DNA of 7,911 nucleotides from Streptosporangiaceae bacterium (GTDB lineage Bacteria; Actinomycetota; Actinomycetes; Streptosporangiales; Streptosporangiaceae), in contig JASHTQ010000357.1 in the NCBI GenBank assembly GCA_030040475.1, positions 1 to 7,911 on the forward strand, in the 5' to 3' direction. Positions 434-7,909 of the stretch are shown here, one piece after another (within the stretch, counting starts at the first letter, position 1; every line of letters starts with the position of its first letter). The position numbers and the translations under genes are program-made. The notes beneath the pieces were generated by a model. That model worked only from the letters and a program-made list of their open reading frames with translations. It made no database searches and was not told the DNA's origin.

Positions 434-2956
434 TCAGCTGCCCATTGCGGAGAGGAAGGCTCCGGCGAGGGACGCGGCGGATAGCTGGGCGGTCTTGCCG
501 GTTTCGATGATGGTGAACGCGACGGTGCCGCGGAAGCCCACGAACCAGCTGGTCCAGCCGGACCCCGACTTGACCAGGCCGACCTGGCCGTACACAGGCG
601 ATCCTGGCACGTCGGCCGGATGGGCGGCGCCGCTGCGGACCGCGTCGAGCATGAGGCTGCGCAGCGCCGGCAGCGTGCCGGGATCCAGTGCGGTGCCCGC
701 GTTGTCAGCCGGGTCGCCGGGAGCCTCGATGAATTGCGGCGTGTGCCAGTAGCCCGAGTCCACTGCCGCCGCGACCATGGCCATGGACAACGGGCTCATC
801 TGCACGTTCCCCTGCCCGATCGTCTCGGCGGCGACGTTCGCCTCGCCGCCGAGCGCAGGCACAGACCCGGAGAAGGCGGGCACCTGCAACTGCGACCAGT
901 CCGCTCCGATCCCGAACTCCTTCGCCACGCTGGCGAGCTTGCTGGCGTTGAGTCGCTCCGATAGCCCCGCGAACACGGTGCCGCAGCCGTCGGCGAACTC
1001 GGCGCTGAACGGCTTCAGCTCGCCTGTCCCGTCGCTGGTAAACGTCTGCCCGCCCACGCTGAAGGAGTTCTCGCAGGAAATCTGGCTGGATGTCTTCAGC
1101 CCGGTTGCCAGCAGCGCGGCCGCGGACACGATGGTGAACGCGATGCCCGGTGTCAGCTTCGCGTTGAGCGGACCCGCCGCGGGCAACGCGCCGGAACCCT
1201 GATGCTGGGCCACCGCGAGAACCTGGCCTGTCGTCGACTGGACCGCGACGATCTCGGCGGAGTTCGGCGCGCCGGCCAGGGCGGTCAGCGCGGCATCCTG
1301 GACCGACGCGCTGATCGTGGTGTGCACCGGTGTGCCGGGAGCACCCGGCCACCGCGCGAGGACACGCTGCTGCGCGCCGGCCGAGTTCACGATCACCACC
1401 TCGGTCGTGGGGGTGCCTATCAGCTGTCGCTGATAGGCAGCCTCCAGCCCGGTCAGGCCGACCGTGGTGCCCGGCAGGTAGTACGCGCCGTCGGCGCGCA
1501 GCACCGGATCGATCTCACTGCCGACCTGGCCGACCAACCCAGTGGCCTTGGCCTGGAACAACCGTTCATAGGCTCGCTTCACTACCAGGCCGGGCACGTC
1601 GGCCAGACGCGAGCGCAGGTCGACGTAGCTGGTCGGGTCGAGCGAGGCGAGCCTGAGGAACTCGCGCGGTGGCGCGGCGCTGATCTGGCCGAGGACCTGC
1701 GTCGCCTCGAGCCCGGTGGCCTCGGCGAACGCCCGGGCCGTCACCGCCGGGTGGGCCAGGCTGTCCGGCATCACGCCGAGCACGTAGACCGGGGCGTTCA
1801 CCTGTAGCGGGTTGCCCTCGGCGTCCAGCACGGATGCCCGGCTCGGGAAGTCGGTCACGATGGCCAGCCTGTCGCCTGGACCGAGGTCGGGCTCGATGAC
1901 GCTGGGCGCCCATTCGACCTTCCAGGCGCCGTCGACCTGGCGCAGCCCGAATTGGCCGTGGTAGGCCCAGACCCGTCCCTGCTCAGCAAGGTCAATCGAG
2001 GCGGTAAAGGACGCCACGGCGGTGCCGCCGTGCTGCACGATCGAGTCCATGGCCAGGAACAGCTGGGTGGCGTCGACCTGCGCGAACGCGGTGGACAGGT
2101 CGGCCGCGACCGTTCTTGGCTCCGCCGTCGTCAGCGCTCCCGCGCCGAGGTAGTCCTGCTGCTGCCAGTCGAGCAGGAACGCCTGCACGGTGGGCTCGGC
2201 GGACGAGTCCGTACCGAAGCCGGTGGCCAGGCCGATGACCAGCACCCCGATGGCGACGATGACGACCGCCGCGACACGCGATCGTCTCGCCCGGCGGTTC
2301 GCCGGCGAGGACCGACGATCGGACTTGGCGGGCGGCGGGGCGACATGGCGGGCCGACCTGGGCTTCGCAGCGGCGCGCGCAGAAGCAGCGGCGCCCGCTG
2401 GATCTACGTCAGGCCGGCCGGGGACCGGGCGTACCGGCCCCGGCGGACGGGCCGACGCCGGCCGGCCCACCGGCGTGAACATTGCATTGGACGCTGGCTG
2501 ACCGCCGTTTGACGACGGCTCAACGGGCCTGAACGGACCCGACGGTACTCGCCGGCCTGGAGGCGCCGCCGCACCGGCGGGCGGGAACGGGCCCGAGAAC
2601 GCGGGCGAGCCGGGGCGCGGCGGAGGACTGGCGGACCAAGGCGGACCCGAGGGCCTCATCGGCACGGCGGGTCCTCCCGGCGCCGCGGACCCTGCCGCCT
2701 CTGCAAGCGCTGCCGGCACTGCGGGCCCGGTCGGGTCTGCAGGCCCTGTTGGCGCTGCGGGCACTATCGGGTCGCCGGGGGCTGACGGGCCAAAGCTTGG
2801 CGGTATGGCCCGGGAGAGGGGCGGGCCGGCGGGGGCGGGCGGGCTTGCCGGCACGGTGGGGGGCGCGTCGGCGGACTGGTCGGCGCCACCGGCGCCGGGC
2901 AAACGGGGATCCTGCGGCCTGGCGTGGCCGCCGCGCTCGTTCGCAGGAGGGGACAC
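434..2956 (-). CDS. Class B penicillin-binding-protein-like protein with a degenerate active site
   Basis: This 840-residue protein has a Pro/Ala/Gly-rich, probably disordered cytoplasmic tail (1-225), a basic patch (RRARRSR, 221-227) and one membrane segment (228-247). An NTF2-like/MecA_N-type region (about 254-355), a PBP dimerisation region (about 365-535) and a transpeptidase-like domain (about 540-838) follow. Family hallmarks remain, such as GQG..SPLSMA (714-726) and KSG (796-798, in place of KTG). The catalytic residues do not: the usual PGSTFK reads PGIAFT at 603-608, so the nucleophilic Ser is Ile605 and the Lys is Thr608. The SxN motif (usually SCNT) reads GCGT at 657-660. I checked these codons in the DNA. 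It probably cannot acylate and may act as a scaffold or regulator. The GTG start lies 13 nt after the smpB stop without a strong ribosome site, so the exact start is uncertain. The frame is intact and ends in TGA. Confidence 0.88.
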   Translation of the reverse strand: MSPPANERGGHARPQDPRLPGAGGADQSADAPPTVPASPPAPAGPPLSRAIPPSFGPSAPGDPIVPAAPTGPADPTGPAVPAALAEAAGSAAPGGPAVPMRPSGPPWSASPPPRPGSPAFSGPFPPAGAAAPPGRRVPSGPFRPVEPSSNGGQPASNAMFTPVGRPASARPPGPVRPVPGRPDVDPAGAAASARAAAKPRSARHVAPPPAKSDRRSSPANRRARRSRVAAVVIVAIGVLVIGLATGFGTDSSAEPTVQAFLLDWQQQDYLGAGALTTAEPRTVAADLSTAFAQVDATQLFLAMDSIVQHGGTAVASFTASIDLAEQGRVWAYHGQFGLRQVDGAWKVEWAPSVIEPDLGPGDRLAIVTDFPSRASVLDAEGNPLQVNAPVYVLGVMPDSLAHPAVTARAFAEATGLEATQVLGQISAAPPREFLRLASLDPTSYVDLRSRLADVPGLVVKRAYERLFQAKATGLVGQVGSEIDPVLRADGAYYLPGTTVGLTGLEAAYQRQLIGTPTTEVVIVNSAGAQQRVLARWPGAPGTPVHTTISASVQDAALTALAGAPNSAEIVAVQSTTGQVLAVAQHQGSGALPAAGPLNAKLTPGIAFTIVSAAALLATGLKTSSQISCENSFSVGGQTFTSDGTGELKPFSAEFADGCGTVFAGLSERLNASKLASVAKEFGIGADWSQLQVPAFSGSVPALGGEANVAAETIGQGNVQMSPLSMAMVAAAVDSGYWHTPQFIEAPGDPADNAGTALDPGTLPALRSLMLDAVRSGAAHPADVPGSPVYGQVGLVKSGSGWTSWFVGFRGTVAFTIIETGKTAQLSAASLAGAFLSAMGS

Positions 2957-2969
2957 GATCCGTCGCCCG

Positions 2970-3434
2970 TCACCTTCGCCGTTTCAGCGCACGATCCATT
3001 TCCCTGGCCGCGTCGCGCTTGGCCAGGTCCTGACGTTTATCGTAGGTCCGCTTACCACGAGCCAGGGCCAGCTCCACCTTGACGTTCCCGTCTTTGAAGT
3101 ACATCGACAGCGGAACCAGCGTCAGGCCCTGCTCCGCGATCTTGCTGGCGATGCGGTCGATCTCCCTGCGGTGCAGCAGCAGCTTCCTGATCCGCCGAGG
3201 GGTGTGGTTGGTCCAGGTGCCCTGCACGTACTCGGGGATGTGCACGTTGTGCAGCCACACCTCGCCGTCCGAGATCTGCGCGAAGCCGTCCGCCAGGGAC
3301 GCGCGGCCCGCGCGCAGCGACTTGACCTCCGTGCCGGTCAGTACCAGTCCCGCCTCAAAGGTGTCCTCGATGGTGTAATCGTGACGCGCACGGCGATTGC
3401 GGGCGACGATCTTCTCGCCTTGCTCCCGGGCCAC
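2970..3434 (-). CDS. smpB: SsrA-binding protein SmpB
   Basis: SmpB binds tmRNA (SsrA) and brings it to stalled ribosomes for trans-translation, acting in the cytoplasm. The 154-residue product has the usual family length. It carries the N-terminal core [10 protein letters not shown] (11-20), the signature GTEVKSLR (34-41), AHIPEY-like NVHIPEY (63-69), [10 protein letters not shown] (84-93) and the basic C-terminal tail [17 protein letters not shown] (125-141). That tail enters the empty mRNA channel. I chose the GTG at 3434 because the resulting start, [13 protein letters not shown], matches actinobacterial homologues. An AGGAGG (3438-3443) lies just upstream, although its 3-nt spacing is short. 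An upstream in-frame ATG at 3512 would overlap ftsX and add residues foreign to the family. The gene sits 29 nt after ftsX and 13 nt before the PBP-like gene, so it is probably in their operon. No ssrA gene is visible nearby. Confidence 0.96.
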
Positions 3435-3463: not shown

Positions 3464-4375
3464 TCAGATACGCAGGTAGCGGCGCAAGGTAAGGAACGAC
3501 GTCGCACCGCACAACAGCACTCCGACGACCATCGAGAAGATAATGACCTCGATCAGGTCACCGACGGACAGACCCACGTTGAACGAGAAGTACTGTTCCA
3601 GGCTATCTAGCATCAGCGACTTGACCGCAACCAGGAGCCCGGCCGCTATCGCCCAGCCGATCAGGCCGGCGATCGTCCCTTCAAGCAGGAACGGCAGCTG
3701 GATGTAGAAGTTCGACGCTCCGACGAGCCGCATGATGGCGGTTTCCCTGCGGCGGTTGAAGGCGGAGAGCCTGATCGTATTGGCCACGAGCAGCACCGCG
3801 GCCACGATGAGGATGAGCGCGATGATGACAACCGCGTTTCTCGCCCCGTCGAGCAGTCGGTAGAACTTATCCAGGATCGTCATCTCGTCGACGACGGTCT
3901 CCACCCCCGCTGCGCCGGTGACGGCACTCGCCACGATGTTGTAATCCGCCTCGGGGTTGCGCAGCTTGACCTCGAACGAATCGGGGATATCACCCTCCTG
4001 GGTGTCCTGCACCAGGGCCGGTTCGTTCGAGAAGTACTGCCTGAATTCGGAGTAGGCCTGCTGCTGGGATACGTAGTAGACGGCCTCCACCTGCGGCATG
4101 GAGGCCAGCTGGTTGTGCAGCGCCGTCCGTTCGGCGTCGGTGGCGGGCCCGTTCTGCTGGCAGGAGGGCTCTGGGCTCGTCTTGATGCACAGGTAGATCG
4201 ACAGCTCGACCTTCCCCTGCCAGTAGGTCCGTGTCCTGTCCACCTGCTTGACGAACAGCAGGCCCGTGCCGAGCAGGGACAGGCTGATGGCCACGACCAC
4301 GATGAGCGCCAGTGTCATGGTGAGATTCCGGCGTAGTCCAATCCAGATCTCGGAGAGGACGAACTGTGAACGCAT
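3464..4375 (-). CDS. ftsX: Cell division protein FtsX, permease-like subunit
   Basis: FtsX is the membrane subunit of the FtsEX complex. It passes ATP-driven conformational change across the membrane to peptidoglycan hydrolases or their activators at the septum. The 303-residue protein shows the family topology: a cytoplasmic start ([17 protein letters not shown]), TM1 (about 20-43), an extracellular domain (about 44-179), TM2 (about 180-202), TM3 (about 226-251) and TM4 (about 272-296). The loop between TM2 and TM3 contains [14 protein letters not shown] (208-221), typical of this permease fold. Cys63 and Cys72 in the extracellular domain could form a disulfide. The ATG at 4375 is supported by the match to actinobacterial FtsX N-termini and by a GAGGG (complement of 4386-4390) about 10 nt upstream. 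It follows ftsE after 59 nt. No hydrolase or peptidase gene sits beside it. Confidence 0.96.
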
Positions 4376-4434: not shown

Positions 4435-5124
4435 TCAGTAGGCCTGGCCGTACACCCCGCGTGACTGGTCTCGGACAACCTTGCCGTATTCGAGTTCGAC
4501 GACTCGCTTGCGCATCGAGTCGACGATGGCGGCGTCGTGCGTGGCCATCACGACGGTCGTCCCTGTCCTGTTGATCCGGTCCAGCACCTTCATGATGCCG
4601 ATCGATGTGGCCGGGTCGATGTTACCCGTCGGCTCGTCGGCGAGCAGGATCATCGGCCGGTTGACGAACGCACGGGCCATCGCGACCCGTTGCTGCTCGC
4701 CACCGGATAGCTCGTCGGGCATCCGGTCGTGCTTGCCTTCCAGGCCGACAAGGTCGATCACCTCCGGCACGACCTTGCGGATGAAGCGCCGGTGCTTGCC
4801 GATGACCTCAAGGGCGAACGCGACATTCTGGTACACGTTCTTATTCGGCAGCAGCCGGAAGTCCTGGAAAACGCAGCCGATGCGACGCCGCAGATACGGC
4901 ACCTTCCAGTTGGTGAGCCGCGCGAGATCCCTGCCCGCCACATGGATCCTGCCGTCTGTCGGCCGCTCCTCCTTCAGGACCAGCCGCAGGAAGGTCGATT
5001 TCCCCGAGCCTGAGGGGCCGACGAGGAAGACGAACTCGCCCTTGGACACCGAGATGTTCACGTTCTCCAGCGCGGGGCGGTTCTGATTTGGGTAGACCTT
5101 GGTGACGTTATCGAAGTTGATCAC
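4435..5124 (-). CDS. ftsE: Cell division ATP-binding protein FtsE
   Basis: FtsE is the cytoplasmic ATPase of the FtsEX complex, which drives regulated peptidoglycan hydrolysis during division. All ABC ATPase motifs are intact in the 229-residue product: Walker [10 protein letters not shown] (36-44), Q-loop Gln87, signature LSGGEQQR (139-146), Walker B ILLADEP (159-165) and the switch His196. The start [12 protein letters not shown] is characteristic of actinobacterial FtsE, so I chose the GTG at 5124. A TTG at 5175 would extend the frame by 17 residues that do not resemble the family. The ribosome site is weak. A short out-of-frame ATG GTC CCG TGA (complement of 5122-5133) overlaps the start and might affect initiation. 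It is the first gene of the presumed ftsE-ftsX-smpB-PBP operon, with a candidate promoter just upstream. Confidence 0.96.
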
Positions 5125-5292: not shown

Positions 5293-5481
5293 ATGAGCTG
5301 CGAACACCTGATCTGCGCTCACTGCGCCAACCCTGTGATCGAGGGACGCTGCCCGGCGTGTCGCGCTGCCCGGCAGCACGTCCACCACCAGCACTTCAGC
5401 GTCTCGCCCCAGCTCATCCTCGCCGCCGTCCTCGCGCTGACCCTGCTCTTGCTCCTCCTGGGCCTCCGCTTCGGAGGGTAA
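5293..5481 (+). CDS. Small zinc-ribbon membrane protein of unknown function
   Basis: This 62-residue protein has two CxxC pairs, Cys8/Cys11 and Cys20/Cys23, with an extra Cys3, giving a small zinc-ribbon-like knuckle. A histidine-rich linker (HVHHQH, 29-34) follows, then one membrane segment (about 41-58, AAVLALTLLLLLLG). The tail is very short. With no signal peptide ahead of the knuckle, the metal-binding part probably faces the cytoplasm. The ATG is supported by AAGGGG about 6 nt upstream. The gene is divergent from ftsE and convergent with prfB. The ordered motif layout and good ribosome site argue that it is real. I do not know its function. A metal-dependent membrane adaptor is one possibility. 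Confidence 0.8.
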   Translation: MSCEHLICAHCANPVIEGRCPACRAARQHVHHQHFSVSPQLILAAVLALTLLLLLLGLRFGG

Positions 5482-5495
5482 GAGAAGAACCACGG

Positions 5496-5566
5496 ACGGC
5501 GAGCGCCGCGATCGGGGCGCGGAGCGCATTAGGGGGGTTCCGGGGGTCGTCCCCCCGGGCCAGCAC
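5496..5566 (-). repeat. Stop-proximal hairpin repeat, copy A; candidate terminator
   Basis: In prfB sense, this element starts 2 nt after the prfB TAG and matches the copy at 7839-7909. Its 54 nt nearest the stop (5513-5566) differ from copy B by about five positions, and the distal 17 nt are more diverged. Hairpin 1 pairs a CCGGGGG arm with CCCCCGG around a short loop. Hairpin 2 is small (TGCG-CTC-CGCG). The distal part folds as CGGC/GCCG (5497-5500 with 5505-5508). It lies between the convergent zinc-ribbon gene and prfB, so it could stop transcription from both sides. Confidence 0.8.
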
Positions 5567-5568
5567 GG

Positions 5569-6675
5569 CTAGCGCCCGTTTTGGCGCATCCAGCGGATCT
5601 CGGCGTCGATGAAGTCGTCGATCTCGCCGTCTAGGACGGAGACGGCGTTGCCGGTTTCCATGCCGGTCCGGACGTCCTTGACGTTCTGGTACGGGTACAG
5701 GACGTAGTTGCGGATCTGGGTTCCCCAGGCACGGGCGCCATCGCCGCGCAGCGTCTGCATCTGCTCGGCTTCCTCCTGCCTGCGCCGCTCGAGCAGCTTG
5801 GCCTGGAGCACGGCCATGGCCGACGCGCGGTTCTGGATCTGGCTGCGCTCGTTCTGGCAGGACACGACGATCCCGGTGGGCAGGTGGGTGATGCGAACCG
5901 CCGAGTCGGTCGTGTTGACCCCCTGGCCGCCCGGGCCGCTGGAGCGGAACACGTCGACCCTGATCTCGTCCTCGGGGATCTCGATGTGGTCGGTCTGCTC
6001 CACCACCGGCATCACGTCCACCCCGGCGAACGAGGTCTGCCTGCGGCCCTGGTTGTCGTACTTGGAGATGCGCACCATCCGGTGCGTGCCGTGCTCGCCG
6101 CGAAGGGTGCCGTAGGCGTAGGGCGCGTTCACCGCGAACGTGGTCGACCTGATGCCCGCCTCCTCCGCGTACGACGTGTCGTACACCTCGGTCGGGAACT
6201 TGTGCCGCTCCGCCCAGCGCAGGTACATCCGCATCAGGTTCTCCGCGAAGTCGGCGGCGTCCGCGCCTCCGGCCTGCGCGTTGATCGAGATCAGTGCCTC
6301 CCTGGCGTCGTACTCGCCGTTCAGCAGGGTGCGCACCTCGAGCTGGTCGATCTCGCTGCGCAGCGCGGCGAGCTCGCGTTCGGCCTCGCCCCTGGTGGGC
6401 TCGTCGTTCTCGGCCTCGGCCAGTTCGAACAGCACCTGGGTGTCGGTGAGCCGCTGGTGCAGGCCGGCCAGCCTGGCCAGCTCCGCCTCCAGGTAGGACA
6501 GGCGCCGGGTAACTTTCTGGCCGCGTTCCTGGTCGGCCCACAACCCCGGATCGGCGGATTGCTCGCGCAGTTCCGCCGCCTCCGTCTCCATGGCGCCGGG
6601 ATTGAGCACCGCCTCGATGCTGGCCAGCTTCGAGGTCAGTGCCGCGATCTCGTCGGCGGGATCGATACCTGCCAT
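5569..6675 (-). CDS. prfB: Peptide chain release factor 2 (RF2)
   Basis: RF2 recognises UGA and UAA in the ribosomal A site and triggers release of the finished peptide. The 368-residue product has a helical N-terminal domain (about 1-110), the RF2-type stretch [12 protein letters not shown] (169-180), [10 protein letters not shown] (195-204) and the catalytic GGQ (249-251) in [10 protein letters not shown]. It ends with a helical tail including [14 protein letters not shown] (274-287). The codon-reading tripeptide, Ser-Pro-Phe in typical RF2, is Ser-Lys-Tyr here (204-206), which I confirmed in the DNA at 6058-6066. It is not RF1, whose motif is Pro-x-Thr. The ATG at 6675 fits the usual RF2 N-terminus, and the much longer open frame upstream is a high-GC artefact. 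There is no in-frame UGA frameshift site of the E. coli kind. The gene ends in TAG, a codon RF1 reads. Confidence 0.95.
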
Positions 6676-6765: not shown

Positions 6766-7839
6766 GTGACGGACCGAAGGCGCAGGACCTGGGGCGGCAC
6801 CCTGATCGGGTGCCTGGGCGCGGCGGTGCTCGGCGGGGTGGTGCTGCTGTCCGCGCAGGGATGCGCGCCGGCGTCGTCGGCGGCCGAAGGCGGCGGCACG
6901 CACGGCCTGACCATCTCCGACGCACGCGCCGCCTACGACTCCTACCTGGCGGCAAGCAACGCCGCCGCGGCGCAGGGCAACCAGGTCCAGGGGCTGGCGC
7001 TGGCCGCGGACGCGCAGTGGGCGGTCCTTCATGCCCAGTACGTCGCGCTGGCCTCGACCGGCACGCCGGTACCGCAGTACAGGTACGGCACGCCGGTCTT
7101 CTACGTGCCCGCGCTGGCCGGCTACCCGCAGTGGTTCATGGTGGCCACGACGAGGACACAGATCGCCGGTACCGGCCAGGACAGCACCGGGCCTGCCGCC
7201 AGGCCCGCGGGCGGGGCCACGACCAGGACGATCATGGTGTTCGAGCGCTCCGCGGCGGGGCAGCCGTGGACGCTGAACGGCGCTGCCACGCTCGACCAGG
7301 CCCTCCCGGCCATCGCCACGAACCGCGACGGCTATGCCATCGCGGTCTCCCACTCCGCTTCGGACCTGCTGCTGCCGCCCGACGTGGTCGGGGCGTCGCA
7401 GGCGGGCGTGGTCGACGAAGGGCCGAAGAACCCCTCCGCGGCGGTGATCGCCGGCGGACCGCTGACGACCGGGCTCTACGCCTCGCAGCTCGCGGAGTCC
7501 AGCTCGGACACCGCGCGCGGCTTGTCCTACCAGTGGCTGCTGGAGGGATCGCCGTTCCTGCAGTTCGGGCTGCAGACGACCGACGGCGGCGCGCTGGTGC
7601 TCTACGGGATGTACCTGAACACGACAACCGAGCACCCGGGCCTGGTGAGCGGGTCGCCGATTCCGGTCCCGGCCAGCTTCACCCCGCTGCTCGCCGCGCC
7701 GACCGAGGTCGGCTACCACGCGGTCTACGCCAACTGGACCTTCCAGTACGCCGCGATCGACCCGCCGGCCTCCGCCAAGGACGCCAAGATACAGGTCATC
7801 GCCGCCGGCGGCGGCCCCAGCTACGGCCACGCGTACTAG
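6766..7839 (+). CDS. Probable exported lipoprotein of unknown function
   Basis: The 357-residue protein starts with a basic stretch (TDRRRRTW, 2-9), a hydrophobic segment (about 10-30) and a lipobox-like AQGC ending at Cys33. It is probably an outward-facing lipoprotein; the Gln at -2 is unusual, so a membrane anchor is an alternative. The mature part begins with an Ala-rich helix ([20 protein letters not shown]) and continues as mixed sheet-rich sequence with no catalytic motif I can see. The layout resembles actinobacterial lipoproteins annotated as DUF8094, from memory only. The GTG at 6766 is chosen because the signal sequence follows it directly and a -10 hexamer sits just upstream. The frame stays open further upstream, but that part overlaps prfB on the other strand. 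The gene is divergent from prfB, with 90 nt between them, and ends in TAG. Confidence 0.82.
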
Positions 7840-7909
7840 TGCTGGCCCGGGGGGACGACCCCCCGGAACCCCCCGGTGCGCTTCGCGCCCCGCTGCGGTA
7901 CTTCGCCGT
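7839..7909 (+). repeat. Stop-proximal hairpin repeat, copy B; candidate terminator
   Basis: This copy begins at the last base of the TAG stop of the lipoprotein gene, in the same orientation relative to its gene as copy A is to prfB. Hairpin 1 is an 8-bp stem, 7847-7854 with 7859-7866, with loop ACGA. Hairpin 2 pairs GGTGCG (7875-7880) with CGCGCC (7884-7889). A third weak stem lies at about 7893-7911. It may extend past the window edge. A transcription terminator is the simplest role. The repeat nature suggests a dispersed family. Confidence 0.8.

What the first reader, a model, noticed from the sequence alone, without database searches (positions are those of the whole stretch)
434..2956. 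Class B PBP homologue that has lost its catalytic residues
The transpeptidase-like domain keeps the fold landmarks (GQG..SPLSMA, KSG), but the SxxK motif reads Ile-Ala-Phe-Thr (DNA 1133-1144) and the SxN motif reads Gly-Cys-Gly (within 977-988). In PBPs the Ser is the acylated nucleophile and the Lys its base, so acylation should be impossible. The open frame of 840 codons is intact, which argues against simple decay. It may be a pseudoenzyme that senses or scaffolds cell-wall machinery, encoded directly after ftsEX and smpB.
Basis: partly seen in the sequence, partly recalled or inferred. Interest (0 to 1): 0.7.

Follow-up and report, generated by a model that had tools for sequence, protein, structure and literature searches.

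The report
Dead penicillin-binding protein kept by selection
Next to cell-division genes, a group of actinobacteria carry a cell-wall cross-linking enzyme whose active-site residues are gone, yet evolution keeps the rest of the protein intact, so it probably works as a scaffold or sensor instead of an enzyme.

Summary
The ORF (434-2956, minus strand, 840 codons, after prfB/ftsE/ftsX/smpB) is a MecA_N + PBP_dimer + transpeptidase protein. Its SxxK reads I-A-F-T and its SxN G-C-G. The "KSG" at 796-798 is not the KTG box: that aligns with Q791-V792-G793, so all three motifs are lost.

The loss is ancient and shared. Of 189 genomes read, 186 lack the SxxK Lys and 172 also the Ser; 187 have smpB just upstream. 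Degenerate copies form one clade. Three of the 189, plus two from a class-level survey, have intact motifs at the same place. Seventeen degenerate pairs show dN/dS 0.014-0.129; AlphaFold2 gives a complete PBP fold (pLDDT 94.8). Conservation has shifted from the transpeptidase-like domain towards MecA_N. The window's subclade has also lost the lipobox Cys and carries a putative transmembrane helix and proline-rich N-terminal tail.

Best reading: a conserved pseudo-transpeptidase, probably a non-catalytic scaffold or regulator of wall synthesis or division; partner unknown. My ten literature searches found no description.

The parts
434..2956 (-). Degenerate class B PBP (pseudo-transpeptidase), 840 codons, GTG start
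   Evidence: start supported by conserved N-terminal peptide in 11 of 120 listed homologues
2915..2938 (-). Conserved N-terminal peptide ERGGHARP (residues 7-14), putatively cytoplasmic
   Evidence: looser RG-x-H-A pattern in 13 of 25 relatives without lipobox against 2 of 162 other syntenic loci
2282..2956 (-). Proline-rich low-complexity N-terminal tail (residues 1-225, 25-27% Pro), putatively cytoplasmic
2213..2281 (-). Putative single transmembrane helix (about residues 226-248) after a basic stretch; judged by eye, no predictor run
   Evidence: sequence; alignment
2216..2218 (-). F247, where most relatives at this locus carry the lipobox Cys
1874..2203 (-). MecA_N domain (residues 252-361)
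   Evidence: Pfam PF05223, E 2e-10
1364..1846 (-). PBP dimerisation / pedestal domain (residues 371-531)
   Evidence: Pfam PF03717, E 5.5e-13
533..1252 (-). Transpeptidase-like domain without catalytic residues (residues 569-808)
   Evidence: Pfam PF00905, E 1.2e-12; model pLDDT 94.8
1133..1144 (-). SxxK position, reads I-A-F-T (605-608)
980..988 (-). SxN position, reads G-C-G (657-659)
578..586 (-). KTG position, reads Q-V-G (791-793)
1073..1075 (-). Cys628, invariant in the 112 intact and degenerate rows of A2; perhaps disulfide partner of Cys658 (inferred, not measured)
   Evidence: invariant column C379 of A2
983..985 (-). Cys658, invariant middle residue of the former SxN
   Evidence: invariant column C409 of A2
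2970..3434 (-). smpB, 13 bases upstream of the PBP gene
   Evidence: PF01668, E 6.3e-64; smpB just upstream on the same strand in 187 of 189 loci
3464..4375 (-). ftsX
   Evidence: PF18075 and PF02687
4435..5115 (-). ftsE
   Evidence: PF00005, E 4.1e-35
5569..6675 (-). prfB (release factor 2)
   Evidence: PF03462 and PF00472

Best explanation
A conserved pseudo-transpeptidase. Shown by computation: a MecA_N-type class B PBP encoded after ftsE-ftsX-smpB lacks SxxK, SxN and the KTG lysine; copies without the SxxK lysine form one clade spanning nearly all sampled genomes of one actinobacterial order, are under purifying selection, and keep the PBP fold. Inferred: one loss on the stem of that clade; with acylation chemistry gone, MecA_N and pedestal are the working parts, and the protein acts outside the cell as a membrane-anchored non-catalytic scaffold or allosteric subunit of a division or wall-synthesis complex (candidates: a SEDS glycosyltransferase, an active PBP, or FtsEX and its hydrolase), while other PBPs do the cross-linking. 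In the window's subclade the lipid anchor appears to have been replaced by a transmembrane helix with a proline-rich cytoplasmic tail that begins with a conserved RG-x-HA-type peptide, which would let it couple a cytoplasmic partner to the wall machinery.
Against: No direct evidence of a partner, location or phenotype. The link to FtsEX is gene order only; smpB is a translation-rescue gene, so the order could reflect co-transcription without shared function. The intact set mixes paralogues with orthologues, and about half of it (8 of 15) has gaps in parts of the pedestal, so 'newly conserved' pedestal positions are partly an effect of those gaps. Window pairs have saturated dS (2.4-9.3), and so has the only intact pair (omega 0.070, dS 3.4), so the comparison with working enzymes is weak. 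Fourteen relatives keep the Ser while lacking the Lys, so residual acylation there cannot be excluded. Where the intact copies at this locus branch is unresolved.
Confidence: 0.65

Rival explanations
1. Peptidoglycan sensor or lectin: the dead cleft, or the MecA_N/pedestal site that in PBP2a is allosteric (recalled), binds wall fragments without processing them, and the anchor or tail relays the state of the wall.
For: Fold retained; relative constraint shifted to MecA_N; conserved N-terminal peptide in the window's subclade.
Against: Former catalytic positions vary widely (13 residue types at the Ser position in 189 loci), unlike a conserved ligand contact; most relatives look lipid-anchored, without a cytoplasmic part.
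Confidence: 0.22
2. New chemistry: a Thr (T at the SxxK Ser position in 103 of 120 listed homologues, or T608 at the Lys position) serves as nucleophile, so it is still an enzyme.
For: T608 is invariant in the 120 listed homologues.
Against: Across the 186 degenerate loci the former Lys is S, T, G, Q or A, and the Ser position has 13 residue types over all 189; SxN and the KTG Lys are also lost in the window; no polar residue is newly conserved in the dead domain at the thresholds; the window itself has Ile at the nucleophile position.
Confidence: 0.04
3. Pseudogene or recent decay.
For: Catalytic motifs lost.
Against: Open frame in the window; in 187 of 189 loci the frame is at least 620 aa long, the other two being contig-end fragments; omega far below 1; clade-wide persistence.
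Confidence: 0.01
4. Beta-lactam decoy or self-resistance factor.
For: MecA_N architecture is shared with resistance PBPs such as PBP2a.
Against: Without the Ser-Lys pair it should not be acylated; the degenerate form is present in 146 of 149 sampled genomes of the order, not in scattered producers (counted); conserved position after ftsX-smpB.
Confidence: 0.03

Closest known systems
MecA_N-type class B PBPs: S. aureus PBP2a, E. faecium PBP5, B. subtilis PBP3
   Same: MecA_N + dimer + transpeptidase order and fold; best PDB matches by profile and by Foldseek.
   Different: Those keep the catalytic motifs (SxxK and KTG seen in the alignments printed for B. subtilis PBP3 and E. faecium PBP5); here all three are gone, and the gene sits after smpB.
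Intact actinobacterial MecA_N PBPs, including those at the same locus in G003, G005, G007, G222 and G298
   Same: Same domains (Pfam shown for L038), a lipobox-like Cys in all five by eye, same smpB-adjacent place.
   Different: PGSTFK and SCN kept in all five; KTGTAE kept in the four whose reading reaches it (L270 is cut off before it); the four measured are 35-38% identical to the window.
Laboratory-made catalytically dead class B PBPs, e.g. B. subtilis PBP 2B S309A (PMC5656894; abstract and outline seen)
   Same: Shows that a class B PBP can have a structural role without catalysis.
   Different: An engineered change in one species; here a natural, clade-wide loss of the whole catalytic set.
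M. tuberculosis PbpLipo (Rv2864c; recalled) and PBPA (structures)
   Same: Actinobacterial class B PBP fold; PbpLipo is recalled to be a lipoprotein with MecA_N.
   Different: Catalytic PBPs (PBPA is solved as acyl-enzymes); gene position not compared here.

Membership tests
Class B PBP (peptidoglycan DD-transpeptidase) | PBP_dimer + Transpeptidase domains | tested here: met
   PF03717 and PF00905 above cut-off
Class B PBP (peptidoglycan DD-transpeptidase) | Class B PBP fold | tested here: met
Class B PBP (peptidoglycan DD-transpeptidase) | SxxK nucleophile and base | tested here: not met
   I-A-F-T; both absent in the 120 listed homologues; Lys absent in 186 of 189 loci, Ser in 172
Class B PBP (peptidoglycan DD-transpeptidase) | SxN motif | tested here: not met
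   G-C-G
Class B PBP (peptidoglycan DD-transpeptidase) | KTG box | tested here: not met
   Q-V-G
Class B PBP (peptidoglycan DD-transpeptidase) | Covalent beta-lactam binding | not testable with these tools
   needs protein
PBP2a-like (MecA_N) proteins | N-terminal MecA_N (NTF2-like) domain | tested here: met
   PF05223 E 2e-10
PBP2a-like (MecA_N) proteins | NCBIfam MecA/PBP2a equivalog cut-off | tested here: not met
   27 bits against a cut-off of 750
Lipoprotein PBPs (PbpLipo-like) | Lipobox Cys | tested here: not met
   Phe247 in the window. Among 189 relatives a Cys is found in 144 by script and in 15 more by eye; 29 lack it, 1 is a fragment
Pseudoenzyme | Homologue of an enzyme lacking catalytic residues, kept by selection | tested here: met
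Pseudoenzyme | Absence of activity and a non-catalytic function shown | not testable with these tools
   needs experiment

The most novel reading that the evidence does not exclude
A large actinobacterial group turned an FtsEX-linked class B PBP into a catalysis-free allosteric subunit. In one lineage it was then re-plumbed from a lipid-anchored to a membrane-spanning protein whose conserved cytoplasmic peptide on a proline-rich leash couples the cytoplasmic division machinery to the wall synthase: a natural separation of the structural and catalytic roles of a class B PBP.
Probability: 0.3. Interest if true: 0.78.

Novelty: new variant of a known kind. Interest (0 to 1): 0.62.

Why it matters
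Engineered mutants have shown that a class B PBP can have a structural role apart from cross-linking (PMC5656894, abstract). Here evolution ran that separation across most of a sampled bacterial order and kept the dead protein, which makes the non-catalytic role directly testable by deletion, domain swap and pull-down. It also means that annotation counts dead proteins as PBPs: many of the listed homologues are named cell division protein FtsI/penicillin-binding protein 2. And it marks which parts of a class B PBP stay conserved once catalysis no longer matters.

Tried and rejected
Own-genome search: none held. First AlphaFold2 run with 19 close sequences and the full 840 aa failed (pLDDT 35.5); redone with residues 250-840 and 112 diverse sequences. 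The genome-contig scan with the single protein reached four loci, one close. Whether the intact copies at this locus are the sister group of the degenerate clade is unresolved: the first FastTree joined three of them to it at support 1.0, larger or better-modelled trees did not, and the AU test does not reject the joined tree (p 0.43 with five, 0.32 with three). In the midpoint-rooted smpB+ftsX tree the three genomes group with the 167 degenerate ones and one genome without the PBP (0.992), while L286 falls among genomes without it. Misalignment as the cause of the motif loss was rejected. An untranslated N-terminal tail (GC3 0.76 against 0.89-0.90 in the domains) was considered and rejected because the N-terminal peptide is conserved. 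Frame breaks: one search lists one TAG inside the match for several genomes; in the six checked it lies at the edge of the frame (five just before it, one is its own stop). The promoter/terminator scan gave nothing above its shuffles. Ten literature searches (only listings seen), plus the abstract and outline of PMC5656894 and passages of PMC6273383, showed no description of this family; the library holds open-licence papers only.

Limits of the counts: the 189 loci are 149 of the 150 genomes (G013 had no listed place) plus 40 further genomes (150 searched, overlapping the first set). L252 and L253 are contig-end fragments and were left out of the tree; one search used 26 degenerate rows and left out par_L006 and par_L148. 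The intact set has 15 rows; the degenerate set has 97 rows and leaves out the P proteins. One degenerate draw had mean identity 0.411 (intact 0.414); the other draws were not measured. One likelihood ratio (TP domain, L191-L197) came out undefined. The first control (20 of 217) held duplicates of the test loci and paralogues; one search replaces it (2 of 162), with the caveat that upstream frames are shorter in the controls.

Full report
OBSERVATION. The window holds, all on the minus strand, prfB (5569-6675), ftsE (4435-5115), ftsX (3464-4375), smpB (2970-3434) and, 13 bases after smpB, an 840-codon ORF (434-2956) with MecA_N, PBP_dimer and Transpeptidase domains. By multiple alignment with intact homologues and by alignment to solved PBPs, the box corresponds to Q791-V792-G793. 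All three catalytic motifs are therefore lost.

HOMOLOGUES. The protein search found 1158 homologues and listed the best 120. None of the 120 has Ser or Lys at the SxxK positions: the Ser position is T in 103, N 7, I 6, M 3, A 1; the Lys position is T in 120. SxN reads [GDA]-C-[GSR], with the Cys in 120.

SYNTENY AND DISTRIBUTION. Profile searches of 150 genomes of the order and 150 of the family of a close relative (G001; overlapping sets, drawn evenly from larger groups) found a match in every one. I read the best copy from 189 distinct genomes: 149 of the 150 of the order set and 40 more of the family set (loci; analysis). smpB lies just upstream on the same strand in 187 of 189 (the PBP's open frame begins between 545 bases before and 54 after the end of smpB's); the other two start at contig ends. 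The SxxK Lys is lost in 186 of 189 (S 86, T 66, G 32, Q 1, A 1) and the Ser also in 172; 14 keep the Ser without the Lys. The KTG box is kept only in the same three intact copies (L253, a fragment, does not reach the box). Those three (L029, L038, L119; genomes G007, G005, G003) read PGSTFK / SCN / KTGTAE. In a class-level survey of 70 smpB neighbourhoods a PBP frame follows smpB in five: three in genomes of the order set (G008, G012, G013) and two (L270, L286) with intact PGSTFK and SCN. In this sample the smpB-PBP pairing is thus largely confined to the group; 30 of the 70 loci show at most about 1.5 kb downstream.

ONE LOSS. The degenerate copies form one clade: 185 rows at support 1.0 with or without the motif columns, SH-aLRT 99 for 26 rows in a 44-row site-mixture tree without motif columns. 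The other MecA_N or PBP rows (17 printed, of which L143 is the syntenic copy of its genome again and L150 repeats L007; 15 distinct) keep SxxK and KTG, with SCN in 14 and SCD in L006, so loss on one stem branch is the simplest history. Whether the intact syntenic copies are the sister group is not resolved (AU p 0.43 and 0.32; the early FastTree favoured it). A midpoint-rooted tree of smpB + ftsX groups the three genomes with intact copies and one genome without the PBP with the 167 degenerate ones (support 0.992 for the union, 0.685 for the degenerate group).

SELECTION. Pairwise maximum-likelihood codon models on 17 degenerate pairs give omega 0.014-0.129 for the whole aligned protein and 0.010-0.148 for the dead domain alone; likelihood ratios against omega = 1 are 74-344 for the whole protein. 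Fourteen pairs have dS below 1. The three that include the window are saturated (dS 2.4-9.3), and so is the one intact pair (omega 0.070, dS 3.4), so I do not lean on the comparison with working enzymes. One likelihood ratio for the TP domain came out undefined.

WHERE CONSTRAINT WENT. Nineteen positions are at least 90% conserved in 15 intact rows but keep that residue in under 50% of 97 degenerate rows: S605, K608, S657, N659, K791, T792, G793, T794 (the catalytic set) and 606, 691, 715, 772, 777, 795, 796, 818, 821, 823, 829. In the other direction 22 positions are newly conserved: 7 in MecA_N, 2 between MecA_N and pedestal, 10 in the pedestal and 3 in the dead domain (W687, L690, V806); none of these three is a likely catalytic residue. 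About half of the intact rows have gaps in part of the pedestal, which inflates the pedestal number. In 200 draws of 15 degenerate rows the ratio of TP to MecA_N conservation is 0.89 (0.81-0.96) against 1.36 in the 15 intact rows; TP to pedestal 1.05 (0.94-1.13) against 1.24. One draw had mean identity 0.411, intact 0.414. The intact set mixes paralogues, so this is a lead. Cys628 and Cys658 are invariant in all 112 rows, so they are an inherited pair, perhaps a disulfide, and not a new nucleophile.

ANCHOR SWITCH. Most copies at this locus, including the five intact ones, have a lipobox-like Cys before MecA_N: 144 of 189 by script and 15 more by eye; 29 lack it and one is a fragment. Of the 29, 26 form one clade with the window (support 0.63-0.73). 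In the window the Cys position is F247, a hydrophobic segment follows a basic stretch, and a proline-rich tail precedes it. Topology was judged by eye. Eleven of the 120 listed homologues start with the same peptide as the window (ERGGHARP), which supports the GTG start at 2956; a looser RG-x-H-A pattern is present in 13 of 25 such relatives against 2 of 162 other syntenic loci (upstream frames are shorter in the latter).

HOW IT WORKS. Shown: catalytic loss, one clade, purifying selection, predicted intact fold, lipobox loss in the window's clade. Supported but weaker: shifted conservation. Inferred: a non-catalytic scaffold or regulator, because a class B PBP is known to have such a role: B. 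subtilis PBP 2B supports division when catalytically dead, PBP 3 then becoming essential (PMC5656894, abstract). The MAG of L001 keeps five other transpeptidase-domain proteins; SxxK and KTG were seen in three of them and KTG in the other two. The link with FtsEX rests on gene order alone. In some relatives an S41 peptidase with PDZ domains lies between ftsX and smpB (L092).

NOVELTY. None of the NCBIfam families matched by six tested proteins (five degenerate, one intact) reached its cut-off, and ten literature searches listed no description. I file it as a new variant of a known kind: a natural, clade-wide pseudo-transpeptidase of the MecA_N class B PBP family. By its defining motifs it is not a member of the catalytic family.

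Noticed in passing
window 5293-5481 (+): Small ORF (62 codons; translation) starting MSCEHLICAHCANPVIEGRCPACRAARQ, two CxxC pairs then a hydrophobic segment: zinc-ribbon-like small membrane protein, opposite in strand to prfB and ftsE.
   Followed up: no
window 6766-7839 (+): Secreted or lipoprotein-like gene (lipobox-like AQGC) with no Pfam match at E 0.001.
   Followed up: no
window 5496-5566 and 7839-7909: 71-base element in two inverted copies, 79% complementary, GC-rich, one after prfB and one after the + strand gene; perhaps a dispersed terminator-like repeat.
   Followed up: no
L092:1379-2584: S41 C-terminal processing peptidase with PDZ domains between ftsX and smpB; similar-looking ORFs in L098, L113, L115 and L123 (by eye); absent from the window.
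   Followed up: partly
L231, L238: Degenerate copies that keep GST and SCN but have Gly for the SxxK Lys (LPGSTFGMVTA): possible intermediate or partly reverted states.
   Followed up: no
L017, L024, L032: Three copies outside the window's subclade that also lack a lipobox Cys: possible independent anchor changes.
   Followed up: no
window 434-2956, residues 228-347: Weak match (21.8 bits, cut-off 37) to NCBIfam NF051431, C-terminal part of the Rv0361 family of membrane proteins, over the transmembrane and NTF2-like part.
   Followed up: no
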